This document shows positions 1-33,224 of a stretch of 33,224 nt of DNA, piece after piece. Below the pieces are notes generated by a model that saw only the letters and a list, made by a program, of their open reading frames with translations, was not told the origin of the DNA and made no database searches. The position numbers and the translations under genes were made by a program. Where the stretch lies: NCBI GenBank assembly GCA_903911455.1, contig CAIWDQ010000657.1:1-33224 (forward strand), written 5' to 3'. The DNA is from an uncultured bacterium. Lineage in GTDB: Bacteria > Bacteroidota > Bacteroidia > Bacteroidales > JACABE01. How positions within the stretch are numbered: position 1 is the stretch's first letter; every line of letters begins with the position of its first letter.

Positions 1-235
1 ATACCCGAAGGCAGGGTTTAAATATAATAAAGAAGAAGAAAGACAGCTATTTTTTAGAAAATATAAAGGATAAGTTACAAACCTATAAGGTTATTAACTT
101 AATAAAAGCTAACAAAGACTTTTGTTGTGTAAAATACAATTGGAAAGTTCATAAAAGTGAAACTGCCCATTTGCGATTTTGCTGAGGAGAACCCCATGCC
201 CCGTTTTGAATTATACAGTCATCTAATTACATTTC

Positions 236-685
236 CTATTCTACAGTAATTTCTATTCTGGAATTAAACACTACATATCTTATATATCTTTTTCTATCAG
301 TAAAATCATCCTTTTTTAAAAAAATTGGATTTTTATCACCGTTACTGACTAATTGATAATTTTTTAATATTGTCTTTAATTCCAGTATTTCCTTTAAGTC
401 TTTGCATAAATGATCTGAACAGCCTTTCGCCAATAAAGAATCTCCATAAAAGATATTTATTTCAATCCTTAACTTATTATTTTCATTCACTTTAAGTAAT
501 TCAATTAATTTATCAAATTCTTCAATATTATTAAATCTGCAATCTCTATATATAGGTATATTTAGAATAATAATATCTCCTTTTTTCAGTGCCACTTTAT
601 TAATTGGATAGCCATAATAAACATTTTGTGAATTTACATGAATTCCACATAAAACTAAAATAATTATAAAAAATAAATTCCTCAT
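236..685 (-). CDS. Small exported protein with degenerate OmpA-like C-terminal domain
   Basis: ORF with N-terminal signal peptide (MRNLFFIIILVLCGIHVNSQ). The rest follows an OmpA-like layout (KLIELLKVNENNKLRIEINIFYGDS ... LELKTILKNYQLVSNGDKNPIF ... RIEITVE). Overlaps the upstream gene by 4 bp (ATGA). Confidence 0.55.
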   Translation of the reverse strand: MRNLFFIIILVLCGIHVNSQNVYYGYPINKVALKKGDIIILNIPIYRDCRFNNIEEFDKLIELLKVNENNKLRIEINIFYGDSLLAKGCSDHLCKDLKEILELKTILKNYQLVSNGDKNPIFLKKDDFTDRKRYIRYVVFNSRIEITVE

Positions 686-2757
686 CTTGATAATATTTTT
701 TTAATTAGACTATTAACTGCATTATTATGAAATTCTGTAGTATTTTGTAATATCATTGGTGTGTGTATTGTTTGATAAGTTTCTGAATTAACAGTAAATC
801 CCCAACCTAAAGATACTGTCCTTTTTCCATTTATTAATACTGTAGATTGAGCGTTAAAAGTAACATCCCATTGGGCTCCAGGGTTTTTGTTTCTTTGAGG
901 CCCATCATCTAACGTGGCATTAGGAGTACCATAACCAGTGTATCCATCAAAATACCTTGCTCGGCTTACGTCAGTTGATTCTTGTACTCCATACCCATCT
1001 AGTCTTTCACCAATAGTTTCCTCAGGCAATACTCCATATAAATTTCCGCTGTTTACATCTGTAATATTTGAGGAATATGTTTGAGTCCAACCAACTTCAG
1101 CACTCTTATCCGTAGGTTTAAAAGATAGATTAATTTGTAAGCCACCTGCACCGTTTTGAGTATTGTTTGGTGCAACCCATGTATTCATTACCAATTTCCC
1201 TTCCCCACTAGGAAGCGTATAGCTCTTTGGATTATCGGCGTCACTTGCATAACTATATCCTTGCTTTCCTGCATAATTTTTATCAAATTCTCCTTGGCTA
1301 TTAGTATTGTTATCCCAAAAAACATTTCCTTCATCATTTTTAACCCATCCTGCACTCATTCCATTTGGGTCAACTAACATCACCGGATTCCATGCACAAT
1401 AAGCATAAGGTGATACATTAGGATATTTATCTGACATGGGGTCAACACTTAAAGCGAAAACAACAGGGTCAACTTTATAATCATCACTTGTTTCAATTGG
1501 GAGTAATTGTAATATCTTTTTTGTTTTAGTATTCAGTAATGCATGATAGTATTGAATACTATCAACAGCTTCATGCAGTTCATCAAACATTCCGTTTGAA
1601 AGTGTTGCATAACGTTGCTTTATTTTTATTGATACAAATGGATTAGGTGTTTTATCATTTAAAATAGCTCCTTCATTTCTTTTTTGCATATTCGCAAGTA
1701 TTATTCGTTCAATATCTTTTGGGATTTCTCTATATCCGATTATATATAAATCGCTCAATTGTCTTTCGTAGCTTACTAAGAGCTTTTGTGTTTGTGGATT
1801 TGTTCTGGCATTTGTAAGTTTTATTATCTTGTTTTCTTTCATTGAAGCTAATAATCTATTTTCTGTTATTTCAGCTTTAAGCAATAAAGCATTTAATGAA
1901 AGTGTATCGTACTTAAAAGCAAGGTCGGCACATTGCAATAAAAAGTCACTGGTATTATCATTATATTTATGTTGATAACTTTTAGCAAGATATATTAAAT
2001 TTAAAGCTACTGCTTGCTTATCATTTAACATTCTTTGAGCCATCCCTTTCATAATTGATGTATTGGTAGTATAAGTAAGTGTTTGAATAGTACCATCACC
2101 AGGAAAGGTCTTTGATGCTAATTCAACATTATTAAAATCTCCTCTTCCGTTTCTATTCTGAATGTATATATGATGTGGTGTAATTGTTAATCGTGCATCT
2201 GATTTCAAACGGTCGGAAAACAATTTAAAAAGAACAGCCAAAGAGTAGCAATTGCCTTGCTTTTCATTGCTTTTTAATAGAAATAAAACTTGTGTATTTT
2301 CCCATTTATTACTACCATAGGGATCTTGATAAGTATATGTGTAAGGCTCTTTATAATATTTTTTTTGGTTGATAGTTAGAAAAGCAGTATCTGTAATATA
2401 TTTAAAAATTGCCCAATTAGTGGTATTAAACCTGAACATTTGTTGTTCAAATCTTCTTAAGCCTTTATATTTCTCTTTATAGACTGCTCTTACATTTTCT
2501 GCATAAGCATTTATCATAAATACATGAAAATCTATTAGGTGTTTAAATTCAGTATAATTAAAATAATTATTATGATACGCATTTTCTGTTAGAAATACTG
2601 CTTTCTCATAATTTAAACTGTCTTTTCCTTCCAGCATGCTTTTTAAAGCATCATAAGCTTGATAAAAACTTATCTTAGTTGAATCGTGTTTGTTTGTTTG
2701 CCCATAAGAAACGAACTGAATAAAAATAATTGCGATGATAATAAATTGTTTTTTCAT
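682..2757 (-). CDS. Exported transglutaminase-like protein with RHS-core-like C-terminal segment
   Basis: Signal peptide MKKQFIIIAIIFIQFVSYGQ. Cys/His pair in NEKQGNCYSLAVLFKLF...TITPHHIYIQ, paralogous to the 474-aa neighbour. C-terminal FALSVDPMSDKYPNVSPYAYCAWNPVMLVDPNG resembles the RHS repeat-associated core consensus ([30 protein letters not shown]). Confidence 0.7.
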   Translation of the reverse strand: MKKQFIIIAIIFIQFVSYGQTNKHDSTKISFYQAYDALKSMLEGKDSLNYEKAVFLTENAYHNNYFNYTEFKHLIDFHVFMINAYAENVRAVYKEKYKGLRRFEQQMFRFNTTNWAIFKYITDTAFLTINQKKYYKEPYTYTYQDPYGSNKWENTQVLFLLKSNEKQGNCYSLAVLFKLFSDRLKSDARLTITPHHIYIQNRNGRGDFNNVELASKTFPGDGTIQTLTYTTNTSIMKGMAQRMLNDKQAVALNLIYLAKSYQHKYNDNTSDFLLQCADLAFKYDTLSLNALLLKAEITENRLLASMKENKIIKLTNARTNPQTQKLLVSYERQLSDLYIIGYREIPKDIERIILANMQKRNEGAILNDKTPNPFVSIKIKQRYATLSNGMFDELHEAVDSIQYYHALLNTKTKKILQLLPIETSDDYKVDPVVFALSVDPMSDKYPNVSPYAYCAWNPVMLVDPNGMSAGWVKNDEGNVFWDNNTNSQGEFDKNYAGKQGYSYASDADNPKSYTLPSGEGKLVMNTWVAPNNTQNGAGGLQINLSFKPTDKSAEVGWTQTYSSNITDVNSGNLYGVLPEETIGERLDGYGVQESTDVSRARYFDGYTGYGTPNATLDDGPQRNKNPGAQWDVTFNAQSTVLINGKRTVSLGWGFTVNSETYQTIHTPMILQNTTEFHNNAVNSLIKKILSR

Positions 2758-2763
2758 TTTTGT

Positions 2764-4188
2764 TTATTTTGAAGTTATAAATAAATTCCTCTTTTTAAGA
2801 TTGTCTAATTGCTTTAATTGTTGTATTTTCCCTTTACTATCTTGGTTTTGCACTATTTTATCGTAAGTTGATTCAGAAATTGATTCGTAACCCAATGATT
2901 CTATTTTTGCATCAATTGAATCCAATTCAACTATCAGTTCTTTTGCTTCAGGTATTTTTTCCATTTCTTCCTTTGTTTTGTTTGGATTCTTTTTTATAAT
3001 ACGATTAAGTTTTACAGTTACTATTTTTTCTCTTAATAACCAGCCTGTAATGTTTGCTTCTTTGTTCGGGAAATAATTCATTGCAGAATCTACACATTGA
3101 TTAATAAATTTACCATCAGCAATACCATATTTTTTATAATAACTGCATGCTAGGTCAATCATTGCGCAGGCAACAACTTGTTGTCTGTCCATAGTGTTAA
3201 GATAAATCCCATTCTTAATTGCAAGTGATTTTATATTAAAATTATCCATATACCATTGATCAGAAATCTGCCAATTACTCGTTACTTCAAAATTATGAAT
3301 ATTTCCTTTATTGTCAGGATATTTAATAAAGGAGTGAATTGGAGCAAACGATAAATAACATTTTGCTCCTAATTGTTCAGCTAATATTGAATATACAATA
3401 GGTAGTGTATGGCATTGTCCGTTTCCTGTAGCAAAAGTTTTTGTTACGTAATAACTTCTTTCGTCCTTTTTTGCTTTATAATCCTGATAATCGTAATAAA
3501 ATCCCAAATGTGTCATTTTTATATTTGGCATTTCTTTATTCTTCTTATTTTTTATGGTTAAAGTATCAGTCATAAACTTTTGAATGCCATAATGCAAAGA
3601 AAGATTATTTTTTAAACTATAATGGTTTTCATATAACCATTGTTTAATGAAACTGACACTTTTATTTATCTGTTCGTCATATTCTGCTTTTGTTAGATAA
3701 ACATTGCCACTAGCTTTTTCTATTTCATAGTAAGCATCTTTAATTGATAAAAGCATTTTGCCTGAAAGCATACCTTGCAAATTATTGAAAGCATCAGTAT
3801 ATGATTTTGTTTGTGTAGAAAAACCGGGAGCTTTCCAATATTCATCACTTATGGTTTTATTTCGTTGATATCTTCCGATTATCTCTCTGTTTATCTGCTC
3901 TTGACTATTTTGTCGATTTCTATCTTGTTGGTCTAGAACATTTGGAGGATTATTCTGATTTGTTGAAGGAGTTTGATAATAATTGTTATATTGATTTAAT
4001 TGTTGGTTAGGCTGTACTGTCCCATTATTAGGTAGGTTATAATTTATTGGTGGGATTTGTGGAGATGTAGGATTATTTTGTCCATATATATAACCAGTAC
4101 TTATCAGTATTAATAAGATACCGATAAATAAGGAAGGTAAATAATACTTAAAACAACATCCCAAGTTGTTTAGATTATTTGTTTTCAT
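2764..4188 (-). CDS. Exported transglutaminase-like protein with N/Q/P-rich linker
   Basis: Signal peptide, low-complexity Asn/Gln/Pro linker, then ATGNGQCHTLPIVYSILAEQLGAKCYLSFAPIHSFIKYPDNKGNIHNFEVTSNW, with a Cys-His-polar arrangement shared with the 691-aa neighbour. Confidence 0.6.
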   Translation of the reverse strand: MKTNNLNNLGCCFKYYLPSLFIGILLILISTGYIYGQNNPTSPQIPPINYNLPNNGTVQPNQQLNQYNNYYQTPSTNQNNPPNVLDQQDRNRQNSQEQINREIIGRYQRNKTISDEYWKAPGFSTQTKSYTDAFNNLQGMLSGKMLLSIKDAYYEIEKASGNVYLTKAEYDEQINKSVSFIKQWLYENHYSLKNNLSLHYGIQKFMTDTLTIKNKKNKEMPNIKMTHLGFYYDYQDYKAKKDERSYYVTKTFATGNGQCHTLPIVYSILAEQLGAKCYLSFAPIHSFIKYPDNKGNIHNFEVTSNWQISDQWYMDNFNIKSLAIKNGIYLNTMDRQQVVACAMIDLACSYYKKYGIADGKFINQCVDSAMNYFPNKEANITGWLLREKIVTVKLNRIIKKNPNKTKEEMEKIPEAKELIVELDSIDAKIESLGYESISESTYDKIVQNQDSKGKIQQLKQLDNLKKRNLFITSK

Positions 4189-4237: not shown

Positions 4238-4631
4238 ATACATTTTTTTCTATAATTTAAAAACCCAATGTTATTTTAATATTTTATTTTTAATTAATCA
4301 CTCTAGTGTTAAAATTTGATCAAAAAAACAGCGTGGTCTTACTATCTATGCTGCTTAAAACGACCTGTATAAAACTTTATAAAAACAAAAAAGCATTTAC
4401 CAATATTGGTAAATAATATAAAATGAGGTTTTGTATTTGGCAAGTTTAAAGAGCTATTTTTATAAAAAACCACTAATTATATGAAAAAGTTATTGATGCT
4501 TTAATTTTTTGTTAGTTGAGTATGGGGTTAGTTTTGTTAGATTTTTTGTTTTAATTAAAGACATAATTACGACAAATTTTAATGTATTTATGTATAATAT
4601 TTAAGGGGAATAAAGCTAATAGCAAGGTGCG

Positions 4632-4694
4632 GAAATGAGTGCAGAAAAATGTAAGGAAATGTAACAAAATGCACTAAAATGCACTAAAATGCAG
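4632..4694. repeat. Short direct repeats (aaaatgcact x2 plus aaaatgcag and looser variants) next to the tRNA fragment
   Basis: aaaatgcact at 4666-4675 and 4676-4685, aaaatgcag at 4686-4694, related gaaatgagtgcag/aaaaatgtaag/gaaatgtaac just upstream. Confidence 0.6.
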
Positions 4695-4729
4695 ATTGTA
4701 AATATCTGATTTAGTTGATTTACAGTTTC

Positions 4730-4794
4730 GACACGCAGGACTTAAAATCCTGTGACCATTGCGGTCGTGCGGGTTCAAGTCCCGCCCGGGGTAC
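4730..4794 (+). pseudogene. 3' fragment of tRNA-Leu (anticodon TAA), probable att junction
   Basis: Anticodon stem CAGGA-CTTAAAA-TCCTG (4736-4752), long variable arm GACC..GGTC, T-arm GCGGG-TTCAAGT-CCCGC (4769-4785), 3' acceptor CCGGGGT (4786-4792). The matching 5' acceptor strand and D-arm are absent upstream. Confidence 0.85.
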
Positions 4795-4795
4795 A

Positions 4796-4834
4796 AAAAA
4801 AGCTCTTAAAACTTTATGTTTTAAGAGCTTTTTT
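4796..4834 (+). terminator. Intrinsic terminator after the tRNA-Leu fragment (bidirectional form)
   Basis: Perfect 17-bp inverted repeat aaaaaagctcttaaaac / gttttaagagctttttt with 5-nt loop. Confidence 0.85.
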
Positions 4835-4856: not shown

Positions 4857-7223
4857 TTATCTGAGCAATGTGACAGTTCCTGTCTTTTGATACTTTTCAT
4901 TCATAGTATTTATAAAGGAAATAAAGTAAACATAAGCACCTGATTGAGCTTTTGCATTTTTATAATTACCATCCCAACCTATATCCATATTATTAGAATA
5001 AAATACTTGTTCACCCCATCTGTTGTAAACCATCATTTCAAAGTTAAATACACTTGAACCATAAGCTCTAAATGTATTATTTGTACTTAAGTCAGGAGTA
5101 AATGAATTAGGAATAAAAAACTTAGTATCTGGTATTACATAAACCCAAAGTGTTGATGAATCAATACAGCCAACACTATTAGTTACAACAAGTTTAACAA
5201 GATACCTTCCTGTATCTAGTGTATTATATGTATGATAGAAATCATTTTGATTATAAGAAAATCCATCACCTGTTTCCCAGTACCATGTTGAGCCAGTACC
5301 TGATAATTCAGAAAAATGAACTTTAGGATTTGTTAATAATGTTGGATTAGGTGTTGCACTTATCATTGGAATAGGAACAGGACTTATGTTAACATTAGTA
5401 GAGCTAGTATTCTTACAACCATGAATATCTGTGCCTGTTACTGTATACAAAGTGTTAATTGGAGGTGCCACATAAGGATTGTGTAATGTATCTTTTGGTG
5501 GAGGAATATTAGATGACCATAAATAAGTACTTGCTCCTGATGCTAAAAGTTGAATTGAATCACCTAGGCAAATTATCCCTGGATTAGGTGTTATTGTGAC
5601 AGTAGGATTAGGATAAGAGAATACAACTACGGTATCTTTATCAGTAAACACATTTGAGGAATTAGTTACTGTAACTATATACGTAGTTGTTGTAGATGGA
5701 TTAACCTTTACAATGGCTGTTGTATCATTGTTGATAGTATTCCAGACGTACTTAATACCACCTGAAGCATGTAAAGTAGCAGTATCTCCGCCACAAATAG
5801 TAGTATCGGGCCCTGCATTTGCAAACTTACAATATATTGTTATCTTAACAGAATCTTTTGCTATCTGATTACATTGATCTTTTACATTTATATGGTACCA
5901 AGTTGTTGTCATAGGGCTTACTGGAAAAGATGTTATAGTATCTCCTGTACTCCATGTGTAATGATATGGTGCAAACCCACCACTTGCAACTACTCCTATC
6001 GGATTATTTATATTACATACTGTTGTATCACCAAAAGCATTTGCAACTAATGGTGGTTTAGGCAGGATGTGGATAATAATAGTATCGTAACCTCCACAAG
6101 TAGATGTTTGTATAATTAACTTTACTATTTTTGTTGAAGTATCTGTAGGATTATTATAAGGTGAAACAGTTATTAATAAAGAATCTGATCCTGTAGGTAA
6201 ATAAATAGTATTTGGGATGGTAACATAATCTGTTCCATTAACAGCATTACCCTGAACAATTATAGGTATTGGTGTTGGATATGTAGCATGATTAGGAAAT
6301 TTTAGTTTTACTATTGCATCATTACAACCTCTAACAGCATTATTAGAGATATTTGGATGTGCATAATTAGTTGTTATCTGTGTTAATGGACTAGAAAAGC
6401 TATTAGCTTCTAGCCAGACCCATGAGTCATATGCATTATCTCCTCTATCAGAGATTGCTAATTTCATATGATAAGTTGTACATGGAATTACTAATGCCCA
6501 AGCTGTTAGTACAGTAGTTTTCCCATCTGCCTGTAAGGATGATCCTGTATTATTAGTAAAATAAGCACAATTTGAACAAGGTCCTGTATTTGTAGTTCCA
6601 TTGTTTACATTATTAATAGTAATAGGGGTTGTAGTACCGGGGACTAATGCTATATTATATTTATTATAATTAGGTCCTAATGGATTTAAACCTGAAATAA
6701 AAAAAGCAAAAATATCATTATATTGAGATCCAACCCATTCATTATATTCTTCTGAACCGAAAACATATCTAAATTTAATTGTATCTGAAACTGGGATAAA
6801 ATCAAATTCTAAAACAGAAGCATCAAATAAAGTAGAACCAGGGACTAAAGCTAATAAATCCGGATCACTTAAACTTGTAGGTGTAACACCTAATGTAAAA
6901 CTGCCAATATTGTTTGGTCCAACAGCACCAGTTACTCCTCCTGATGCCATTATTAAACCACTATTAAATCCTAGATTAGTAGGTGTGCTTCCAGTCGTAA
7001 AAGCACCGAAGTTATTAAATGTAACAGGAGCACTAGAACCATTATAAGTAACATTACTAACAGTAACTCCAGTTCCAACAAGTACGTTCTGTACTAACGT
7101 TTGTGGAGATAATCCATTTGCTGTAGTTACGGTCATCTGGGCAAATATGCCTTGATTTATATACAATAAAGCTACTGTTATTATTGTTGCAAACCTATTA
7201 ACCGATCTAAATATTTTTTTCAT
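4857..7223 (-). CDS. Choice-of-anchor L / PKD-domain surface protein with T9SS type-B (gliding motility-associated) C-terminal domain
   Basis: N-terminal choice-of-anchor-L-like segment (PTNLGFNSGLIMASGGV...FRYVFGSEEYNEWVGSQYNDIFAFFISG); PKD-like segment; C-terminus FIPNSFTPDLSTNNTFRAYGSSVFNFEMMVYNRWGEQVFYSNNMDIGWDGNYKNAKAQSGAYVYFISF. Confidence 0.9.
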   Translation of the reverse strand: MKKIFRSVNRFATIITVALLYINQGIFAQMTVTTANGLSPQTLVQNVLVGTGVTVSNVTYNGSSAPVTFNNFGAFTTGSTPTNLGFNSGLIMASGGVTGAVGPNNIGSFTLGVTPTSLSDPDLLALVPGSTLFDASVLEFDFIPVSDTIKFRYVFGSEEYNEWVGSQYNDIFAFFISGLNPLGPNYNKYNIALVPGTTTPITINNVNNGTTNTGPCSNCAYFTNNTGSSLQADGKTTVLTAWALVIPCTTYHMKLAISDRGDNAYDSWVWLEANSFSSPLTQITTNYAHPNISNNAVRGCNDAIVKLKFPNHATYPTPIPIIVQGNAVNGTDYVTIPNTIYLPTGSDSLLITVSPYNNPTDTSTKIVKLIIQTSTCGGYDTIIIHILPKPPLVANAFGDTTVCNINNPIGVVASGGFAPYHYTWSTGDTITSFPVSPMTTTWYHINVKDQCNQIAKDSVKITIYCKFANAGPDTTICGGDTATLHASGGIKYVWNTINNDTTAIVKVNPSTTTTYIVTVTNSSNVFTDKDTVVVFSYPNPTVTITPNPGIICLGDSIQLLASGASTYLWSSNIPPPKDTLHNPYVAPPINTLYTVTGTDIHGCKNTSSTNVNISPVPIPMISATPNPTLLTNPKVHFSELSGTGSTWYWETGDGFSYNQNDFYHTYNTLDTGRYLVKLVVTNSVGCIDSSTLWVYVIPDTKFFIPNSFTPDLSTNNTFRAYGSSVFNFEMMVYNRWGEQVFYSNNMDIGWDGNYKNAKAQSGAYVYFISFINTMNEKYQKTGTVTLLR

Positions 7224-22755: not shown

Positions 22756-23712
22756 ATGTCAGCAATAGAGCGTTTAGGATTATCATTAACAGAATTAGAG
22801 AAATTGGATAAACAATATTCTTATGAGCAGGCTCAAACCCAAGATATATTTGGTTTTAAATGGGCTAAAAGAGATACTTACGAATCAGAAGCTGTTAAAA
22901 AAGCAGGTGCAGCATGGTTAATCGAAAGATATTTCGAGAATAGTTATGATAAGATGAATGAGTTTTTGAACAAAGATGGCGAACGTAAAATAATACTTGA
23001 TGCCGGAAGTGGTTCAGGCTATTCTGCATTGCTTTTGTTTGGTGATGAATTGAAGAAACACGATTATTTAGGTGTTGATATTTCGGATGCTGTTAATGAA
23101 GGCAGAGCAAGATTTGCTGAATTAGGTATAAAAGCTGATTTTATTAAAGCAAGTTTGATGGATCTGGATTTTATTCCTGATGGAAGTATAGATATTATTT
23201 TTTCTGAAGGTGTATTGCACCATACTGATAGTACCGAAAACGCTATTAAATATCTTTCTAAAAAATTAAAGAAAGATGGTTCATTTATGTTTTATGTTTA
23301 TTTAAAGAAAAGTGTTATCAGAGAATTTACTGATGATTATATCAGAGAACAATTGTTGCAATATGGCAATCAGGAAGCCTGGGATAAATTAATTCCGTTA
23401 ACAAAATTAGGGAAAGCTTTAGGTGAATTGAATATCGAGATAGATGTAGAAGAGGATATTGATTTATTAGGTATTAAAAAAGGTAAACTTGATTTGCAGA
23501 GATTCTTTTATTGGAATATTTGCAAAGCATTTTACAAACCAGAATACAATATTGATGAGATGAATCATTTGAATTTTGATTGGTTTCGTCCACTAAACTG
23601 TCAGCGTCAAACGCCAGAACAGGTTAATCAATGGTGTGTTGAAGCAGGATTGGAAATAGAACATCAAAACATTCAAGAGGCAGGAATTACAATTATTGCA
23701 AAGAAAAAATGA
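22756..23712 (+). CDS. Class I SAM-dependent methyltransferase
   Basis: [15 protein letters not shown] motif [15 protein letters not shown] motif. Confidence 0.9.
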
Positions 23713-24215
23713 AACTTTTAGATTCATTAATCAATAGTTTGTTAAAAAAGAAAAGGAAAATCCTAAAGGATAAATATAATAGGGTTTTACCTATTGGCGA
23801 TTTGTTATCCGACAGATGGGAAAAGGCAAAATTCCTTGGCTTCGGCGAAGGCACCAGCATTTATGACAGTTGTCTTGTATTAGGTGATGTAAAGATTGGT
23901 GAAAAAACCTGGGTAGGACCATTTACAATATTAGATGGATCGGGAGGGTTAGAAATCGGAAGCAATTGTTCTATCTCAACAGGAGTGCAAATATATTCGC
24001 ACGACACTGTAAGATGGGCAGTTTCCGGAGGAAAAGAACCTTATGAATATGACAAAACAATAATTGGAGACAACTGCTATATTGGTCCGAATACCGTTAT
24101 ATCAAAAGGAGTTAAAATTGGAAAAGGAACCATTGTTGGAGCTAATAGTTTCGTGAACAAATCGTTTCCTGAAGGATCAAAGATTGCAGGTAGTCCGGCA
24201 AAATTAATAGAATAA
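23709..24215 (+). CDS. Hexapeptide-repeat (LbH) acyltransferase
   Basis: Hexapeptide pattern: [40 protein letters not shown]...[49 protein letters not shown]. Confidence 0.92.
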
Positions 24216-24258
24216 TACATCAGGTTTTAGAATAATATTTATCAATACAATTGTAAGC

Positions 24259-25587
24259 ATGCTAAAGAAACTATTCTTTTTTATTTTTTTCATAATAATT
24301 TCTCCATTTTTCTTTGCTGCATACTTCATTATTGTATTTCTAAAAGTATTAAAACCTAAAAGAGAAACACCCAACCTTATCTGGGGACCAGAGCCTTTGA
24401 TAAGTAATAAATACTGGTCGGATGCTTTAAATAAAAAAGGTTTTAAATCCGAAACATTAATGGAAGGTTATTATGCCTCTATTCATAAAGAATCTGACTA
24501 TGATAAATACACCTATAATTTTCTTCCTTTTTTAAAGAATACTGTTTTAAGAAAGGTTAATAATTATATGATTGCTCCATATATTTCGTTTATTTATGCT
24601 ATAAATAACTTTGATATTTTTCATTATCATTTTACCAGTGGCTTTTTAAAAGATACTCCTTTAATGTTTTTTGAATCCGGTTTGCTTAAATTGGCAGGAT
24701 GTAAAGTGATAGTAACAGCTTATGGTGGTGATTTTTATCGCTTGTCGAAAGTGAACAGTATAAGCTGGAGACATGGGCTATTGGTGAATTATCCAATATT
24801 AGCTAAGGTTGAAACTAAGATTGAAAAGAAAGTAAAATACTGGATTAAGAATGCCGATTTTATTATAAATGGATTTCAAATTGATGGTTTGGGAAGATGG
24901 GATATATTCCCATATAATATGGTAGTTATTAATACTGAACAATGGCCTCAGGTAAAAAGAGATTATGCAAATGATGGGGCTAATGGGACTGTAAAAGTAG
25001 TACACACACCTAATCACAGAGGTGTAAAAGGGACAGAATATATTGTAAATGCCATTAAAGAATTAAAAGCAGAAGGCTTAAAAGTTGAATTGGTTTTGTT
25101 AGAGAAAGTGCAGAATGAAGAAGTGAGAAGAATATTGCAGGAAGAAGCTGATATATTGGTTGAACAATTAATATTGGGCTTCGGAATGAGTGCAATAGAA
25201 GGAATGTCGTCAGGATTGCCTGTGATGTCGAATCTATCGGAAGAAGATTATACGAGAGCTTTCAGACGTTTCTCATACTTGAATGAATGTCCGATATTAT
25301 CTTCAACACCTGAAAATGTAAAAGAGAATTTAAGAGCATTGATCACTTATCCTACTTTGAGAAAAGCTTTGGGAGAAGCGGGTAATAAGTATGTTGAAAA
25401 ATATCATTCCAATAAAACTGCTCAAGCAATGTTTTCTGCTATTTATGAAAAGATATGGAATAAAAAAGATATTGAATTAATGAATTTCTTTCATCCTTTG
25501 TTCCCTAATTCATATAATAATTCGCTTCCAATTGTAGAACATCCTCTATTTGAGAATAAATTACCTGACACATTTAAGAGCAATTAA
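24259..25587 (+). CDS. Glycosyltransferase (GT4-like), N-terminal hydrophobic segment
   Basis: VVHTPNHRGVKGTEYIVNAI ... ADILVEQLILGFGMSAIEGMSSGLPVMSNL. Confidence 0.8.
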   Translation: MLKKLFFFIFFIIISPFFFAAYFIIVFLKVLKPKRETPNLIWGPEPLISNKYWSDALNKKGFKSETLMEGYYASIHKESDYDKYTYNFLPFLKNTVLRKVNNYMIAPYISFIYAINNFDIFHYHFTSGFLKDTPLMFFESGLLKLAGCKVIVTAYGGDFYRLSKVNSISWRHGLLVNYPILAKVETKIEKKVKYWIKNADFIINGFQIDGLGRWDIFPYNMVVINTEQWPQVKRDYANDGANGTVKVVHTPNHRGVKGTEYIVNAIKELKAEGLKVELVLLEKVQNEEVRRILQEEADILVEQLILGFGMSAIEGMSSGLPVMSNLSEEDYTRAFRRFSYLNECPILSSTPENVKENLRALITYPTLRKALGEAGNKYVEKYHSNKTAQAMFSAIYEKIWNKKDIELMNFFHPLFPNSYNNSLPIVEHPLFENKLPDTFKSN

Positions 25588-27041
25588 TGATTAAGAAACT
25601 TGTAAAAGACATAGTCATATACGGTGGAAGCGATTTTATTTTCAAATTCATTAACTTTGCTGTATTCCCAATATATGCAAATATATTAAAAGTGTCAGAC
25701 TTTGGTGTAATGTCTTTAGTTATTACCTATTCCAGTTTGATTGGGATCGTAGCAAATGTTGGTTTGAATAATGCTGTTCAACGTTTTTACTGGGATAAAG
25801 TTATACCAGAAAACAAAAGACCCTCATTAGTTAGCACAGGTTTATATGTGCAAACATTTTGGTCGATACTCCTAATAGCAATAGTATTATTATTGACTTA
25901 TTTTTTTGGGCAATCTTATCTTGAGAAAACACAAATCCCCTGGACTTATGTATTGCTTTGTTTGATTGCATCAGTCTTTGACAGAATCATCTTTTTCGGG
26001 ATAGATACAATTAGACTACAGTTAGAACCTTTAAAATATACTTTGCTTTCAAGTGTAAAGAATATCTTCAGTGCTTTCCTTTGCATATTATTTACAATCG
26101 TTTTGCACAAAGGACTTACAGGCTACTTCCAAGGCTTATTAATTTCCTATATGCTCACAACTCCTTTAGCATTATTTTTAGTGAAGAAGAACCTGACTTT
26201 TAAGTTTGATTGGGGTTATGCAAAGGATTTATTAAAGTTTGGATATCCTTTTATATTTGCAGGTTTGGCATATTGGTTGTTTTCGTCAATGGACAGGTGG
26301 ATGTTGTCTACTATGAGTAATAATGTGCAGGTTGGGCTTTACGACATCTCATTTAAGTTTGCAATGGTGATATCTTTTGTAGGAGCCGCATTTGGGATGG
26401 CATGGTCGCCAATGGTGATAAAAATAATAAATGAAGACCCTGATTACAGAGCAACAATTGGAAGGATATTTACTTATTTCTTTTTAATTGTAGGAATGCT
26501 AGGGATATTAATAAGTATGTTTGGCTACGAATTATTATTATTAACAACAAAAAAAGATTATCATGAAGCGCGGCATATAATGCCATTTGTTTCAATGGGG
26601 ATCGTATTTTATTGTACCACTCAGATAACTGCATTAGGGATAACTCTTGAAAAGAAGACTAATTATTTATCATACTTTGCATGGTTTACTGCAATAATTA
26701 ATTTTGGTTTAAACTATTTATTTATCCCAAAGTTTGGTGCAGTAGGTTCAGCATTTGCTACTTTAATATCATACATAGTATTAACGGGAGGATATTATCT
26801 TGTGATGAGAAGAATTCATCCGATAAAAACAGAATACAAAAAGATGCTTTCAATATTACTTTCAATTTTATTATCGTTATTATTTCTTTACTTTTTGAAT
26901 AAACAGGAATGGAGTTTTTACGTTATATTATACAAAGTTATCTTTTTAGCATTAGTCATTATTGCATTGTTTGTAACTAATGTAATAAACATACAACAAT
27001 TAAAAGAATTATGGGGAAAGTTCAGCAAAAGGTCGTTATAA
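25587..27041 (+). CDS. Polysaccharide flippase (Wzx/MATE-like)
   Basis: Many TM helices; N-terminal IYGGSDFIFKFINFAVFPIYANILKVSDFGVMSLVITYSSLIGIVANVGLNNAVQRFYWD typical of oligosaccharide flippases. Confidence 0.92.
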   Translation: MIKKLVKDIVIYGGSDFIFKFINFAVFPIYANILKVSDFGVMSLVITYSSLIGIVANVGLNNAVQRFYWDKVIPENKRPSLVSTGLYVQTFWSILLIAIVLLLTYFFGQSYLEKTQIPWTYVLLCLIASVFDRIIFFGIDTIRLQLEPLKYTLLSSVKNIFSAFLCILFTIVLHKGLTGYFQGLLISYMLTTPLALFLVKKNLTFKFDWGYAKDLLKFGYPFIFAGLAYWLFSSMDRWMLSTMSNNVQVGLYDISFKFAMVISFVGAAFGMAWSPMVIKIINEDPDYRATIGRIFTYFFLIVGMLGILISMFGYELLLLTTKKDYHEARHIMPFVSMGIVFYCTTQITALGITLEKKTNYLSYFAWFTAIINFGLNYLFIPKFGAVGSAFATLISYIVLTGGYYLVMRRIHPIKTEYKKMLSILLSILLSLLFLYFLNKQEWSFYVILYKVIFLALVIIALFVTNVINIQQLKELWGKFSKRSL

Positions 27042-27922
27042 CAGGAGCAGGTGGTTTTCTTGGGAAATATTTAGCTTCCTATTTGGCATCTGAAGGTGAT
27101 AAAGTATATGCTTTAACATTATTCGATCCATCTGATGATGATAAGAAAATGTTCTTTTCTTCCGAAAATATTGTTCTTGTTAAGAAGGATATTGCTAAGG
27201 ATGGTTTTGATGACTTACCAAATGATATAGATGTAGTTATTGCTCTTGCACAATCTCCTTTCTTCAGAGAATTTCCTGACAAAGCTAAAGATATTTTTGA
27301 TGTAAATGTTGCGGCTTTTGCGCAGATCTTACAATGGGCAAATAAGATTAAGGTTAAGAAATTTGTATATGCATCTTCTGGTGGCGTTTATAATGACCCA
27401 CTTGCTAAAGAATATAAAGAGGATGATGTGATTAATCCTAACATTTCAAAAGGATATTATCAGGGTAGTAAGTTGTGTGGTGAGATCTTATTTCAAAACT
27501 ATTATTCTTTCTTTGAGACTTCCATTATATTAAGACCTTTCTTTATTTATGGAAAGACACAGAATAAAGATATGTTTGTAGCCAGAATCATTGATTCAGT
27601 TATTAATGGGAAAGAAATCTTTCTTCAAGGGAAAGAAGGTTTACTTGTTAATCCTATTTATGTTGAGGACGTTGTTAAGGTAATTGTAAAGTCTTTGGAG
27701 CTAAAGAACAATCATATTATAAATGTTGGTGGCCCAGATGTTATTTCTTTAAAGGAAATTGCTGAGGTTATTAGTAAACGAGTTCAGAAAGAGCCTATAT
27801 ATAAGTATGTAGACGCTCCTCCAACTGATTGTGTTGGGAATATTGACAAACTAAAGAAGCTTTTCGATATTGATCTTACTTCTTTTACAAAGGGTATTGA
27901 TTTAACTATTGATACAAAATAA
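27011..27922 (+). CDS. NAD-dependent epimerase/dehydratase (extended SDR)
   Basis: KVVITGAGGFLGKYLASYL Rossmann motif; SGGVYND; YYQGSKLCGE (YxxxK). Confidence 0.9.
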   Translation: MGKVQQKVVITGAGGFLGKYLASYLASEGDKVYALTLFDPSDDDKKMFFSSENIVLVKKDIAKDGFDDLPNDIDVVIALAQSPFFREFPDKAKDIFDVNVAAFAQILQWANKIKVKKFVYASSGGVYNDPLAKEYKEDDVINPNISKGYYQGSKLCGEILFQNYYSFFETSIILRPFFIYGKTQNKDMFVARIIDSVINGKEIFLQGKEGLLVNPIYVEDVVKVIVKSLELKNNHIINVGGPDVISLKEIAEVISKRVQKEPIYKYVDAPPTDCVGNIDKLKKLFDIDLTSFTKGIDLTIDTK

Positions 27923-28993
27923 ATGAAAGTATTACATCTACCATATTCTACAGGGGGCAATAGCTGGGGTTTAGCTTGTGGTGAAAGAGCTATCGGTCTT
28001 GACTCAAAGGTGCTTACTATTGATAAGAACTGGCTTGATTACCCTACGGATATTTGCCTGAATATTGATGTAAAAGAAAGGTATAAGCTGCCTTATAACA
28101 TTATCAAGTTATTTAGTACTTTTCTTAAGATAAGGAATAAGTACGATGTTTTTCATTTTAATTCCGGAGCTAGTTTGATAGATTTTGCAAACTATAAGAT
28201 GCCTCTGTTTGAGCTTCCTTTTTATCCAAAAGACAAAAAGATTATATTTACTTATAATGGTTGCGATATTCGTCAGAAATATCCGACTATGAAGAGGGTA
28301 ACTTTTGCGGCTTGCCACGAAAAAGAATGCTATAGTGGTGTTTGTAACAGTGGTAAGATTGATGAGATAAGAAGGCAGAAGATTAAGATTGTGGAGAAGT
28401 ATGCGCATCATATCTTTGCTCTTAACCCTGATCTGTTGTATTTTCTTCCCGAAAAGGCTACTTTTCTTCCTTATACTGTTGCAAGATGGGAGGAAATTGA
28501 AAGGGTCTACAAGCCTATTGATAATGTTATCAATATTGTGCATTCGCCTACTAATAGAGTTACTAAGGGTTCAAAGTTTATTATTGATGCTGTAACTGAG
28601 CTTCAAAAGAAATATACAAACATCAATCTGATTATGGTAGAGAAGATGCCCCATAACGAAGCTCTTGAGGTTTATAAGAATGCTCATATTATCATTGATC
28701 AGGTGCTGATTGGCTGGTATGGCGGCTTTGCTGTTGAAGCGATGAAGATGGGTAAACCTGTTGGAGTGTTCATTCGCGAAGAAGACCTTAAGTTTTTACC
28801 TGATGGAATGGCTAAAGACTTGAAGGATGCTGTAATTAATATGAATCCTTTTACAATTAAAGATACACTTGAACTTTATCTCCAGAATCCTTCTTTGTTG
28901 AAACAAAAGAGTGAAGCTTCTCTTGCTTATGTCAATAAGTGGCATGATCCTAAATACATTGCAGGTATTACTAAATCTGTTTACGAATCCTAG
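27923..28993 (+). CDS. Glycosyltransferase, related to the product of 24259-25587
   Basis: IVHSPTNRVTKGSKFIIDAVTEL ... AHIIIDQVLIGWYGGFAVEAMKMGKPVGVFI. Confidence 0.8.
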   Translation: MKVLHLPYSTGGNSWGLACGERAIGLDSKVLTIDKNWLDYPTDICLNIDVKERYKLPYNIIKLFSTFLKIRNKYDVFHFNSGASLIDFANYKMPLFELPFYPKDKKIIFTYNGCDIRQKYPTMKRVTFAACHEKECYSGVCNSGKIDEIRRQKIKIVEKYAHHIFALNPDLLYFLPEKATFLPYTVARWEEIERVYKPIDNVINIVHSPTNRVTKGSKFIIDAVTELQKKYTNINLIMVEKMPHNEALEVYKNAHIIIDQVLIGWYGGFAVEAMKMGKPVGVFIREEDLKFLPDGMAKDLKDAVINMNPFTIKDTLELYLQNPSLLKQKSEASLAYVNKWHDPKYIAGITKSVYES

Positions 28994-28999
28994 AATCTT

Positions 29000-30949
29000 A
29001 TGTGTGGCATTGGTGGTATATTTAATCTGAATCATAAGCCTGTTGATGTTGCTAAACTCAATAGGATGGCAAAGATTATCAGGCATCGCGGACCTGATGA
29101 TGAAGGCTTTCTACTTATTAATTCCGAAAGAAAAGTAATAAGGCATTGCTTTGGCGAAGATACTATTCCCGAACTTCAAGCTACTACTGCTCCTCTTGAT
29201 AACGATTTTCAGGCTAATATTGGCCTTGCTTTCCGTCGCCTTTCGATTATCGACTTGAGTGCTAAAGGGCATCAGCCGATGAGTAACGAGGATAAGTCGT
29301 TATGGATAACTTTTAACGGTGAGATTTATAATTATATTGAACTAAGAGAAGAGCTTAAGCAATCTGGTCATATTTTCTACACAAAGACCGATACTGAAGT
29401 CATACTTAAGGCTTACAAGGAATGGGGTGTTAATTGCCTCAATCGTTTTAATGGGATGTGGTCTTTTGCGCTTTGGGATATTGAAAAGCAGCTTTTGTTT
29501 TGTGCCAGAGATAGGTTCGGCATAAAGCCTTTCAATTATTATTTTGATGGTAATCAGTTTATCTTCGGTTCTGAAGTTAAGCAGATACTCGTTAATGATA
29601 TTGATAAAACCCTGAACGAAGAGGTTATTTACAAGAGCCTTAAGTTGGGTTCTTACCTAATTAATTCCAACAATACTTTCTTTAAAAACATACACATCCT
29701 TCCGCATTCCCACTATCTTATTATTAAAGATAATAAGATGGAGATTAATCAGTATTACGATTTGTATCCTAAGCCCTTTGCTAAGTCTAAGCTTAGTTTT
29801 GCTGAAGCTTGTGAGGCTTATAAGGATTTGTTTATTGATGCTGTTAATTTGAGGATGCGCAGTGATGTTGAGGTTGGTAGTGCTTTGAGCGGAGGTTTAG
29901 ATTCTTCTGCCATTGTTGCCACTGCCGTTAATTGTACCGATAAGCAGTTCAAAACTTTTTCATCTTACTATACATATTCTCCGGCATACGATGAGCGAAA
30001 GTGGATTAAGTTGGTTACCGATCGTTTTAACGCTAAGGCTTTCTATGTTTCGGCTAATGCTGAAACTGCCATGAATGACTTGGAAACCATTACCTGGCAT
30101 CACGATTACCCTGTGCCCGGTTCTAGTCCTATTGCTCAGAATTATGTTATGAAGATCGCCAGAGAAAACGGCGTTACTGTGCTGCTCGACGGGCAGGGGA
30201 GTGACGAGATTACGGGCGGGTATCATCATGCTTTTTACAGGTATTATGCTCAGCTGTTGAAGTCTGGGAATCTGATGCGCTTTGCTAAGGAGTATCCTTC
30301 TTACCTTAAAAATAACCCTAAGGGAAGTACTGCTGCCAAGTTGATGAAGCTTGCTGCAGTGTTGTTCTTGTCCGAATCAAAGTTGTATAAAATGGAGGCT
30401 AAGAGCAGGTTGGTGAATCCACTTTCGATAAGTTTCGACGATAATAGCATCTTCAACAATATAAAGGATCTGCATACGGATAAGCTTTCCAACTTCCTTT
30501 ATAATCAGATGATGTCTACTTCTATACAGACGCTTTTGCATTTTGAGGATCGCAATTCAATGGCGCATTCTATTGAGAGCCGCGTTCCTTTTTTAGACTA
30601 TCGTCTTGTAGAGTTTGCGTTTACCCTTCCTTCTCATTATAAAATCAATAAACATAATGGGAAATATATTCATAGGGAAGCGCTCAAAAATATTGTTCCA
30701 AAGGAGATAATGGAACGAACGGATAAGGTTGGTTTCCTTGCTCCCGGCGAACATTTCTGGTTGCGCAATGAGATGAAACCTTTTATGGAAAACCTTTTAA
30801 ATTCCCCTGCTTTCAATAGTAGAGGCATCTATAATCATAAACTAATAAAGGAAGAATATAAAAAGTACCTGAACGGAAGTTCGACTTATGCTAATACGCT
30901 TTGGCAGATCATGGCTTTAGAAGTATGGTTTAAGAAATTTGTTGACTAA
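29000..30949 (+). CDS. asnB: Asparagine synthase (glutamine-hydrolysing) family amidotransferase
   Basis: MCGIGGIF N-terminal Cys2 nucleophile, RHRGPDDEG, SGGLDSSA PP-loop, LLDGQGSDEITGGY. Confidence 0.93.
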   Translation: MCGIGGIFNLNHKPVDVAKLNRMAKIIRHRGPDDEGFLLINSERKVIRHCFGEDTIPELQATTAPLDNDFQANIGLAFRRLSIIDLSAKGHQPMSNEDKSLWITFNGEIYNYIELREELKQSGHIFYTKTDTEVILKAYKEWGVNCLNRFNGMWSFALWDIEKQLLFCARDRFGIKPFNYYFDGNQFIFGSEVKQILVNDIDKTLNEEVIYKSLKLGSYLINSNNTFFKNIHILPHSHYLIIKDNKMEINQYYDLYPKPFAKSKLSFAEACEAYKDLFIDAVNLRMRSDVEVGSALSGGLDSSAIVATAVNCTDKQFKTFSSYYTYSPAYDERKWIKLVTDRFNAKAFYVSANAETAMNDLETITWHHDYPVPGSSPIAQNYVMKIARENGVTVLLDGQGSDEITGGYHHAFYRYYAQLLKSGNLMRFAKEYPSYLKNNPKGSTAAKLMKLAAVLFLSESKLYKMEAKSRLVNPLSISFDDNSIFNNIKDLHTDKLSNFLYNQMMSTSIQTLLHFEDRNSMAHSIESRVPFLDYRLVEFAFTLPSHYKINKHNGKYIHREALKNIVPKEIMERTDKVGFLAPGEHFWLRNEMKPFMENLLNSPAFNSRGIYNHKLIKEEYKKYLNGSSTYANTLWQIMALEVWFKKFVD

Positions 30950-30961
30950 TCACATTCAATT

Positions 30962-31744
30962 ATGAAACATATCATTAAATTCTTTATAAACGTTATTCCA
31001 CGCAAGTACATCCAACTGTTCAGCCATATAGCTACCAAGATTCTTGGTTTGTTTTATATCGGCAACAAGGTTGAATGTCCCGTTTGTAGCCATCATTACA
31101 GAGAGTTCCTACCTTACGGCTACGTTACTCCTCGTCCGAATGCTTTGTGCCCTAACTGTCTGGCATTGGAGCGTCATCGTTTGATGCATCTTTATCTAAA
31201 AGAAAAGACTAACTTCTTTACTGACAACTTAAAGGTGTTGCATGTGGCTCCTGAGTATTGTTTTATCAAGCGTTTTGATGAGCTTAAGAACCTGGATTAC
31301 ATTACTGCTGATTTGGAATCACCATTGGCTAAGGTTAAGATGGATGTTCAGAAGATACCTTTTCCAGAGAATACTTTTGATGTTATCTTTTGCAATCATA
31401 TAATGGAGCATGTTGATGATGTTCATCTTTCTTTAACTGAATTATACAGAGTGTTGAAACCAGGAGGTTGGGGAATAATACAGTCGCCAATTAACGCTAA
31501 AAGAGATGTTACTTACGAAGATAAGAGCATCACATCACCAGCTGAACGTGAAAAACATTTCGGACAGAAAGATCACCTGCGTGAGTTTGGTTTAGATTAT
31601 GGCGAACAGCTTGCTAAAGGTGGCTTCACAGTGGTAGCTGACGAGTACATTAATACTTTATCTAAAGAAACTATCGCTAAGTATGCTTTGCTTGCTTATG
31701 ATGATATAACTATTGAAGAAACAATCTTCTTGGTGCAGAAGTAG
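30962..31744 (+). CDS. Zinc-ribbon-containing SAM-dependent methyltransferase
   Basis: VECPVCSHHY...ALCPNCLALERHR four-Cys module followed by a methyltransferase core (FDVIFCNHIMEHVDDVHLSLTELYRVLKPGG). Confidence 0.88.
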   Translation: MKHIIKFFINVIPRKYIQLFSHIATKILGLFYIGNKVECPVCSHHYREFLPYGYVTPRPNALCPNCLALERHRLMHLYLKEKTNFFTDNLKVLHVAPEYCFIKRFDELKNLDYITADLESPLAKVKMDVQKIPFPENTFDVIFCNHIMEHVDDVHLSLTELYRVLKPGGWGIIQSPINAKRDVTYEDKSITSPAEREKHFGQKDHLREFGLDYGEQLAKGGFTVVADEYINTLSKETIAKYALLAYDDITIEETIFLVQK

Positions 31745-32762: not shown

Positions 32763-32921
32763 ATCTCTTTAAAATTATTATTTCAAAAAATAAATCTAAA
32801 TTTGGGAATATTTTAATCTGTTGTATTTTAGTCTTATAAAATTATTTACCTACTCGGAATACGAATTTTCAATTTGAAATCTCTTCAAAAAAAGCTTCAT
32901 AACGTTCTGATATAATACCAA

Positions 32922-33131
32922 GTAGTCGAGAGGAAGTATACATGAGCCGAAAGGAAGTATACATGAGCCGAAAGGAAGTGTACATAAGCCGAGAGGAAGT
33001 ATACTTGAGCCGTGAGTAAATACACTTGAGCCGTGAGTAAGTACACATAAGCTGCGAGTAAATACACTTGAGGCGTGAGTAAGTCCAAAAAAGCTCTTAG
33101 AAAGTACACATAAGCTGATAGTAAGTGCAAA
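32922..33131. repeat. Tandem array, 21-bp unit, 10 copies
   Basis: Consensus tgagccg(a/t)(a/g)ag(g/t)aagtaca(c/t)a-like units at a strict 21-bp step from 32922; divergence increases rightward. Confidence 0.92.
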
Positions 33132-33224
33132 GTTGTCGATTTGATAAATAAAGCACCTATTTTAAAAGGCAAAAATATTATGTATTTCTTAAAATTAGTT
33201 GTTAACTCAAATAAATATGCTTAA

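What the first reader, a model, noticed from the sequence alone, without database searches (positions are those of the whole stretch)
4700..4834. 3' tRNA-Leu(TAA) fragment marks the end of an integrated element occupying the left 4.7 kb
About 65 nt of tRNA-Leu (anticodon arm, variable arm, T-arm, 3' acceptor) is present, but the 5' acceptor strand and D-arm are missing and replaced by unrelated AT-rich DNA. The native-looking terminator follows on the right. This is the classic displaced 3' duplicate left by tyrosine-recombinase integration into a tRNA 3' end. The element should therefore lie to the left and chromosome to the right. tRNA-Leu is a documented target of Bacteroides mobilizable elements such as NBU1.
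Basis: partly seen in the sequence, partly recalled or inferred. Interest (0 to 1): 0.75.

Follow-up and report, generated by a model that had tools for sequence, protein, structure and literature searches.

The report
Mobile element end at tRNA-Leu
The 66-base piece of a leucine tRNA gene is the scar left where a mobile DNA element inserted itself into that gene; this is a familiar kind of scar, but it belongs to a little-described family of transferable elements in environmental Bacteroidales.

Summary
Window 4730-4795 is an exact 66-nt copy of the 3' part of the genome's only intact tRNA-Leu(TAA), on contig C354 behind mutS and tRNA-Gly. Left of it lie 12-bp-spaced arm-type repeats, GGTGCGGAAATGAGTGCAGAA (4626-4646); near-identical repeats lie 95-107 nt after the intact tRNA. 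Three related species show the same pair (intact tRNA, terminator, arms, convergent tyrosine integrase; elsewhere arms, then a 57-58-nt 3' fragment); a fourth (G003) has an apparently empty site. All five integrase homologues above 50% identity outside this genome end beside tRNA-Leu(TAA). The relatives' element carries relaxase, VirD4-type coupling protein, ArdC and defence genes, so it resembles an integrative mobilizable element; phage, plasmid and IMG/VR searches found no relative of the integrase. Caveats: here only a 28-codon integrase remnant lies beside the tRNA (an intact integrase is on contig C187, linkage unknown). The two ends are on separate contigs. The right-flank genes lie on the other side of mutS in relative G001, so this lineage's own empty site was not seen. 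The left 4.7 kb is sporadically distributed cargo. New member of a known kind.

The parts
4730..4795 (+). Displaced 3' fragment of tRNA-Leu(TAA) (right attachment site, attR); 66 nt from the 3' strand of the D-stem through the 3' end plus CA
   Evidence: 100% identity to C354:1428-1493, the only other copy in the genome
4736..4752 (+). Anticodon stem-loop CAGGA-CTTAAAA-TCCTG, the probable crossover region
   Evidence: Identity between intact gene and fragment starts at GGACTT (4738) in three related species; anticodon-centred crossovers are one of two main classes in Islander (PMC4383910). Inferred, not tested
4626..4646 (+). Arm-type direct repeats GGTGCGGAAATG / AGTGCAGAA, 12-bp period, about 90-110 nt from the core
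   Evidence: Counterpart at C354:1588-1608; same spacing in G001, part of it in G004 and nzgw131; unique in the window, 0 of 100 shuffles
4595..4729 (+). Element-side DNA of the attachment site, homologous to the element end in related species
   Evidence: 74% over 204 nt (fragment included) to G004 L056, 76% over 163 nt to nzgw131 L078
4796..4834 (.). Hairpin terminator right of the fragment; probably the old chromosomal terminator of the tRNA, possibly shared with the converging CHU_C gene
   Evidence: 17-bp stem, -20.3 kcal/mol; unlike the conserved terminator after the intact tRNA
2764..4188 (-). Cargo gene: exported 474-aa protein with invariant Cys259, His285, Glu301 (transglutaminase-like by inspection)
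   Evidence: No Pfam hit; homologues in 5 other genomes of 58; residues invariant in 7 sequences
682..2757 (-). Cargo gene: 691-aa paralogue of the 474-aa protein with a weak RHS-associated core match
   Evidence: 28% identity to its neighbour; TIGR03696 E 0.0016, below cut-off; pair conserved in G004 and G016
236..685 (-). Small exported protein, 149 aa, no family
4857..7223 (-). First chromosomal gene right of the fragment: PKD/CHU_C (type IX secretion) protein
   Evidence: PF13585, PF00801; 48% homologue 5' of pth-mutS-tRNA in G001

Best explanation
The fragment is the right attachment site (attR) of an integrated element of a tRNA-Leu(TAA)-specific tyrosine-recombinase family. The integrase recombined an element site carrying a copy of the tRNA 3' part with the chromosomal tRNA-Leu downstream of mutS and tRNA-Gly. 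The crossover probably lies in the anticodon stem-loop, with 12-bp-spaced arm repeats on both element sides. The element rebuilt the tRNA at its left end (C354), supplying a new 3' part and its own terminator, and pushed the old 3' part to its right end (window 4730-4795). The element lies left of 4730; the 4.2 kb of genes seen there are cargo. Shown: duplication, orientation, paired arm repeats, integrases at the same site in related species, a complete intact/fragment pair and an empty site in relatives. Inferred: crossover position, that C354 and this window are two ends of one element, and that its backbone is mobilizable. The integrase next to the tRNA in this genome has decayed to a remnant, so the element may be immobile unless the intact integrase on C187 can act on it.
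For: Exact 66-nt duplicate, only two copies in the genome; intact tRNA-Leu behind mutS and tRNA-Gly. Paired arm repeats at both ends, unique in the window. Intact tRNA, terminator, arms and convergent integrase in G001, G004, nzgw131, G043 and G183; 57-58-nt fragments behind matching arms in G001, G004 and nzgw131. Empty site in G003 with the right flank of G001's fragment. Conserved, covarying terminator after the intact tRNA in six species. Relaxase, T4SS coupling protein, ArdC and integrase on G000 C187 and in G001's element.
Against: The two ends are on different contigs. The integrase beside C354's tRNA is a 28-codon tail with two in-frame stops; C187, with the intact integrase, carries no tRNA-Leu piece. 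In G001 the window's right-flank genes (CHU_C, M20) lie left of pth-mutS-tRNA instead of right of the tRNA; a small rearrangement must be assumed, for which mutS and pth being unlinked in G000 (C63 has rplY-pth) is only indirect support.
Confidence: 0.88

Rival explanations
1. Tandem accretion: several elements used the same tRNA-Leu in turn. The fragment was made by one element, while the DNA now left of it and the remnant beside C354 come from different, partly decayed elements.
For: nzgw131 has two 3' fragments 1.9 kb apart and G004 has two. G000's C354 integrase tail differs from the intact C187 integrase: 61% identical over 28 codons.
Against: Only one fragment exists in G000, and its arm repeats closely match those beside C354.
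Confidence: 0.25
2. The fragment sits outside the original locus: a deletion, inversion or recombination between tRNA copies moved the 3' fragment and element end next to CHU_C-M20, so the window's right flank is not the original right flank of the tRNA.
For: In G001 CHU_C and M20 are left of pth-mutS-tRNA-Gly-tRNA-Leu. G000's mutS and pth are unlinked. The G003/G001 right-flank genes are on other contigs in G000 (C163, C164, C606).
Against: CHU_C and M20 are neighbours of the mutS-tRNA locus in both genomes, so an inversion of the mutS block in one lineage is enough; gene order also varies among G001, G002 and G003.
Confidence: 0.2
3. A degenerate tRNA or chance resemblance with no element involved.
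For: No integrase within the window.
Against: 66 nt without a mismatch to the intact gene, truncated near the anticodon stem as in three other species, with arm repeats.
Confidence: 0.01

Closest known systems
Genomic islands mapped by tDNA plus displaced tDNA fragment (Islander, PMC4383910)
   Same: Intact tRNA gene restored by the element, displaced 3' fragment in the same orientation at the other end, tyrosine integrase, anticodon-class site
   Different: Here tRNA and fragment are on different contigs, and the local integrase is a remnant
NBU1 and MTnPi4, integrative mobilizable elements of Bacteroidota in the 3' end of tRNA-Leu (PMC5704250)
   Same: Same phylum, same target gene type and end, tyrosine integrase, relaxase (MobP-type hits, below cut-off)
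   Different: Carries a VirD4-type coupling protein and ArdC, which the review's table does not list for NBU1; duplicated block is 57-66 nt; integrase relationship to IntN1 not tested
G002's 5.7-kb element at the same tRNA-Leu (locus L054)
   Same: Same tRNA-Leu, fragment at the far end, repeats near both ends, integrase at one end
   Different: 18-nt duplicate, repeats TAGTGGAC-type, the integrase lies at the fragment end

Membership tests
tDNA-integrated genomic island (tyrosine integrase) | Intact tRNA gene and a 3' fragment of it in the same genome | tested here: met
   66 nt, 100%
tDNA-integrated genomic island (tyrosine integrase) | Same orientation, 3' fragment downstream, element between them | tested here: inconclusive
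   Element-side repeats are on the right sides of both; linkage not shown in G000. In G001 the flanks agree with the empty site of G003, though its element is split over two contigs
tDNA-integrated genomic island (tyrosine integrase) | Tyrosine integrase inside the element | tested here: inconclusive
   Intact integrases at the site in G001, G004, G183; only a remnant beside the tRNA in G000, intact copy on C187
tDNA-integrated genomic island (tyrosine integrase) | Empty site in a relative | tested here: inconclusive
   Apparent empty site in G003 explains G001's element; no relative has tRNA-Leu joined to the window's right flank
Integrative mobilizable element (IME) | Own relaxase and integrase, no mating-pore genes | tested here: inconclusive
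Integrative mobilizable element (IME) | Excision and transfer | not testable with these tools
   Needs cultured host
NBU1-type element | Insertion in the 3' end of tRNA-Leu | tested here: met
   NBU1 target from PMC5704250
NBU1-type element | IntN1-type integrase and the NBU1 common core | not tested
   IntN1 sequence and paper not held
Prophage | Phage structural genes or matches to phage genomes | tested here: not met
   Integrase has no match in 50,697 phage records or IMG/VR; no structural genes seen in the G001 or C187 sequence scanned. One Phage_rep_O-like protein

The most novel reading that the evidence does not exclude
An undescribed family of Bacteroidales mobilizable elements, specific for the mutS-linked tRNA-Leu(TAA). 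It brings its own replacement terminator for the restored tRNA, matched arm repeats in 12-bp steps, and exchangeable cargo at the attR end, including defence systems (Lamassu, GmrSD-like, Fic, TIR). It has repeatedly accreted in tandem at one hot spot.
Probability: 0.5. Interest if true: 0.4.

Novelty: new member of a known kind. Interest (0 to 1): 0.28.

Why it matters
It fixes the exact border between chromosome and mobile DNA in the window and shows that the mutS-linked tRNA-Leu(TAA) is an integration hot spot in environmental Bacteroidales, used by at least two element families. The paired arm repeats and core give a ready test of what the integrase recognises, and the site is a good place to mine for defence genes. 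It does not change understanding of how tRNA integration works.

Tried and rejected
The integrase was sought in plasmids, phages, IMG/VR and PDB sequences without a match. The C187 integrase as the integrase of this very element: possible, but no tRNA-Leu piece is on C187 and its downstream DNA differs from C354, so it is left open. A conserved segment shared by C354, C187 and C270 contains GACACRC(A/T)G like the tRNA; considered as a second attachment site, but in C187 it is the coding end of the integrase, so not claimed. The AlphaFold model of the 474-aa protein was poor (mean pLDDT 46), so no fold search was run. Degenerate-tRNA and chance readings rejected. Williams 2002 and the IntN1 paper are not held.

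Full report
What is in the window. Bases 4730-4795 are an exact 66-nt copy of the 3' part of a tRNA-Leu(TAA) gene. The assembly (G000, 4.44 Mb, 657 contigs, 97.6% complete) holds two places with this sequence: the window and C354:1428-1493. C354 is a 1,860-bp contig with the end of mutS, tRNA-Gly(GCC) and an intact tRNA-Leu(TAA) at 1407-1492. The window itself has no callable tRNA and only a sub-threshold Rfam match. Base 4729 and those before it do not continue the tRNA.

Element-side repeats. Left of the fragment, at 4626-4646, is GGTGCGGAAATGAGTGCAGAA. Right of the intact tRNA, at C354:1588-1608, is GGTGCGGAAATGGGTGCGGAA. The window pattern is unique in the window and was absent from 100 shuffles. 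Both are direct repeats in a 12-bp step. After the intact tRNA they lie 95 and 107 nt from its end; before the fragment they lie 112 and 100 nt from GGACTT. Repeats of this kind, inside the element and on both sides of the core, are what arm-binding tyrosine integrases use (general knowledge; not tested here).

Relatives. An exact scan for the 57-nt core in one genome per species found 21 contigs. Three other species show both halves. G001 (isolate Cfx3-09): intact tRNA on C21 followed by terminator, arms and a convergent tyrosine integrase, and a 57-nt fragment on C9 preceded by GGTGCGGAA repeats. G004 (Loc090721-8-6m bin-0401) and nzgw131 show the same with GAGTGCTG- or GAGTGCAG-type repeats. 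The repeat type thus changes from species to species in step at both ends. The DNA left of the fragment in the window aligns with the fragment end in G004 (74% over 204 nt) and nzgw131 (76% over 163 nt), fragment included.

Integrase specificity. In 197 related genomes the closest integrase homologues are in G001, G004, G183, G043 and G000 itself; nzgw131 adds one. In all five outside G000 the gene converges on tRNA-Leu(TAA) beside tRNA-Gly. More distant homologues (about 31-33%) lie near other tRNA genes (tRNA-Ala, Val, Asn). The active-site region and tyrosine motif are conserved (by inspection). In nzgw131 and G043 the single stop in the extracted frame lies upstream of the probable start.

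Terminator. Directly after the intact tRNA, six species carry a related hairpin (GCCGAAA...TTTCGGC). Thirteen pairs are predicted, six of them with changes on both sides that keep the pair. The terminators behind the displaced fragments are unrelated to it and to each other. So the element appears to bring a replacement terminator along with the new tRNA 3' part, and 4796-4834 is probably the old chromosomal one. This is inference.

Empty site. In G003 tRNA-Leu is followed by chromosomal genes including a LolE-like and an MsbA-like gene; the same genes lie right of the fragment in G001. This is the missing comparison for the family, but not for G000's own lineage. In G000 the genes right of the fragment are a PKD/CHU_C protein and an M20 peptidase. 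In G001 these lie left of pth-mutS-tRNA. G000's pth is on another contig, behind rplY and without mutS, so the region has been rearranged between the genera. An inversion of the mutS-tRNA block in one lineage would reconcile them.

What kind of element. G000 contig C187 and G001's element share a backbone: coupling protein (PF02534), a small neighbour gene, relaxase (PF03432), ArdC-type antirestriction protein and integrase. No mating-pore gene was seen among the proteins scanned, so it looks like an integrative mobilizable element; the scan was partial. G001's element is at least 53 kb, if both contigs run to their ends within it, and carries Lamassu (LmuA, LmuB), GmrSD-like, TIR and Fic genes. 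In G000 a second contig (C44) matches G001's element. C187 has not been linked to the window. In G000 the DNA beside the intact tRNA holds only the last 28 codons of an integrase gene with two stops.

Left 4.7 kb. Two paralogous exported proteins and a small one. The pair occurs in G004 (68%), G016 (56%) and G051 (45%), more distantly in G029 and G034, and is absent from G001-G003; its context differs, and in G004 similarity stops inside the first gene. Cys259, His285 and Glu301 are invariant in seven sequences, which suggests a transglutaminase-like fold; the model was too poor to test it. This is sporadic cargo, as at the same end in G001 (Fic gene) and G004 (ATPase of a candidate defence family). 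The contig begins inside a palindromic repeat with 48 matches in the genome, which explains why assembly stopped there.

Verdict. The remaining doubts are linkage, the decayed integrase and the unexplained right flank.

Noticed in passing
window 1-60: The contig starts inside a dispersed palindromic repeat (TTATATTTATAACCGAAGNCAGGGTTTAAATATAA) with 48 matches in the genome, some in pairs about 125 bp apart.
   Followed up: partly
L078 618-674 and 2581-2637 (nzgw131): Two tRNA-Leu 3' fragments 1.9 kb apart, the first followed by an element-type terminator and arm repeats: tandem element remnants at one tRNA.
   Followed up: partly
L054 9244-15060 (G002): A different 5.7-kb element at the same tRNA-Leu with an 18-nt duplicate (AGTCCCGCCCGGGGTACA), TAGTGGACTATATAGTGGACGATA repeats and a 466-aa integrase, all on one contig.
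   Followed up: partly
L104 12538-12594 (IMG/VR UViG_3300028571_000286): Phage-like genes directly 3' of an intact mutS-linked tRNA-Leu(TAA), with GGGGGAGGGTA repeats near the tRNA end: possibly a prophage in the same site.
   Followed up: no
L053, L063 and L064 (G001 C21): The relative's element holds a defence set: LmuA/LmuB (Lamassu), GmrSD-type, TIR, AriA-like ATPase-methyltransferase fusion.
   Followed up: partly
L002 1665-1752, L027 3268-3357, L028 7471-7558: A 90-bp segment (77-81% identical) shared by C354, C187 and C270; it encodes the integrase tail in C187 but lies in another frame context in C270, and contains GACACGCAG as in the tRNA-Leu core.
   Followed up: partly
window 32897-33172; L101 1721-2299; L102 8640-8897; L031 2856-3260: Minisatellite-like arrays between genes that read as short repeated peptides; seem common in this genome.
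   Followed up: no
window 22756-31744: Looks like a surface polysaccharide cluster from the translations (methyltransferases, acetyltransferase, glycosyltransferases, flippase, epimerase, asparagine synthase); not tested.
   Followed up: no
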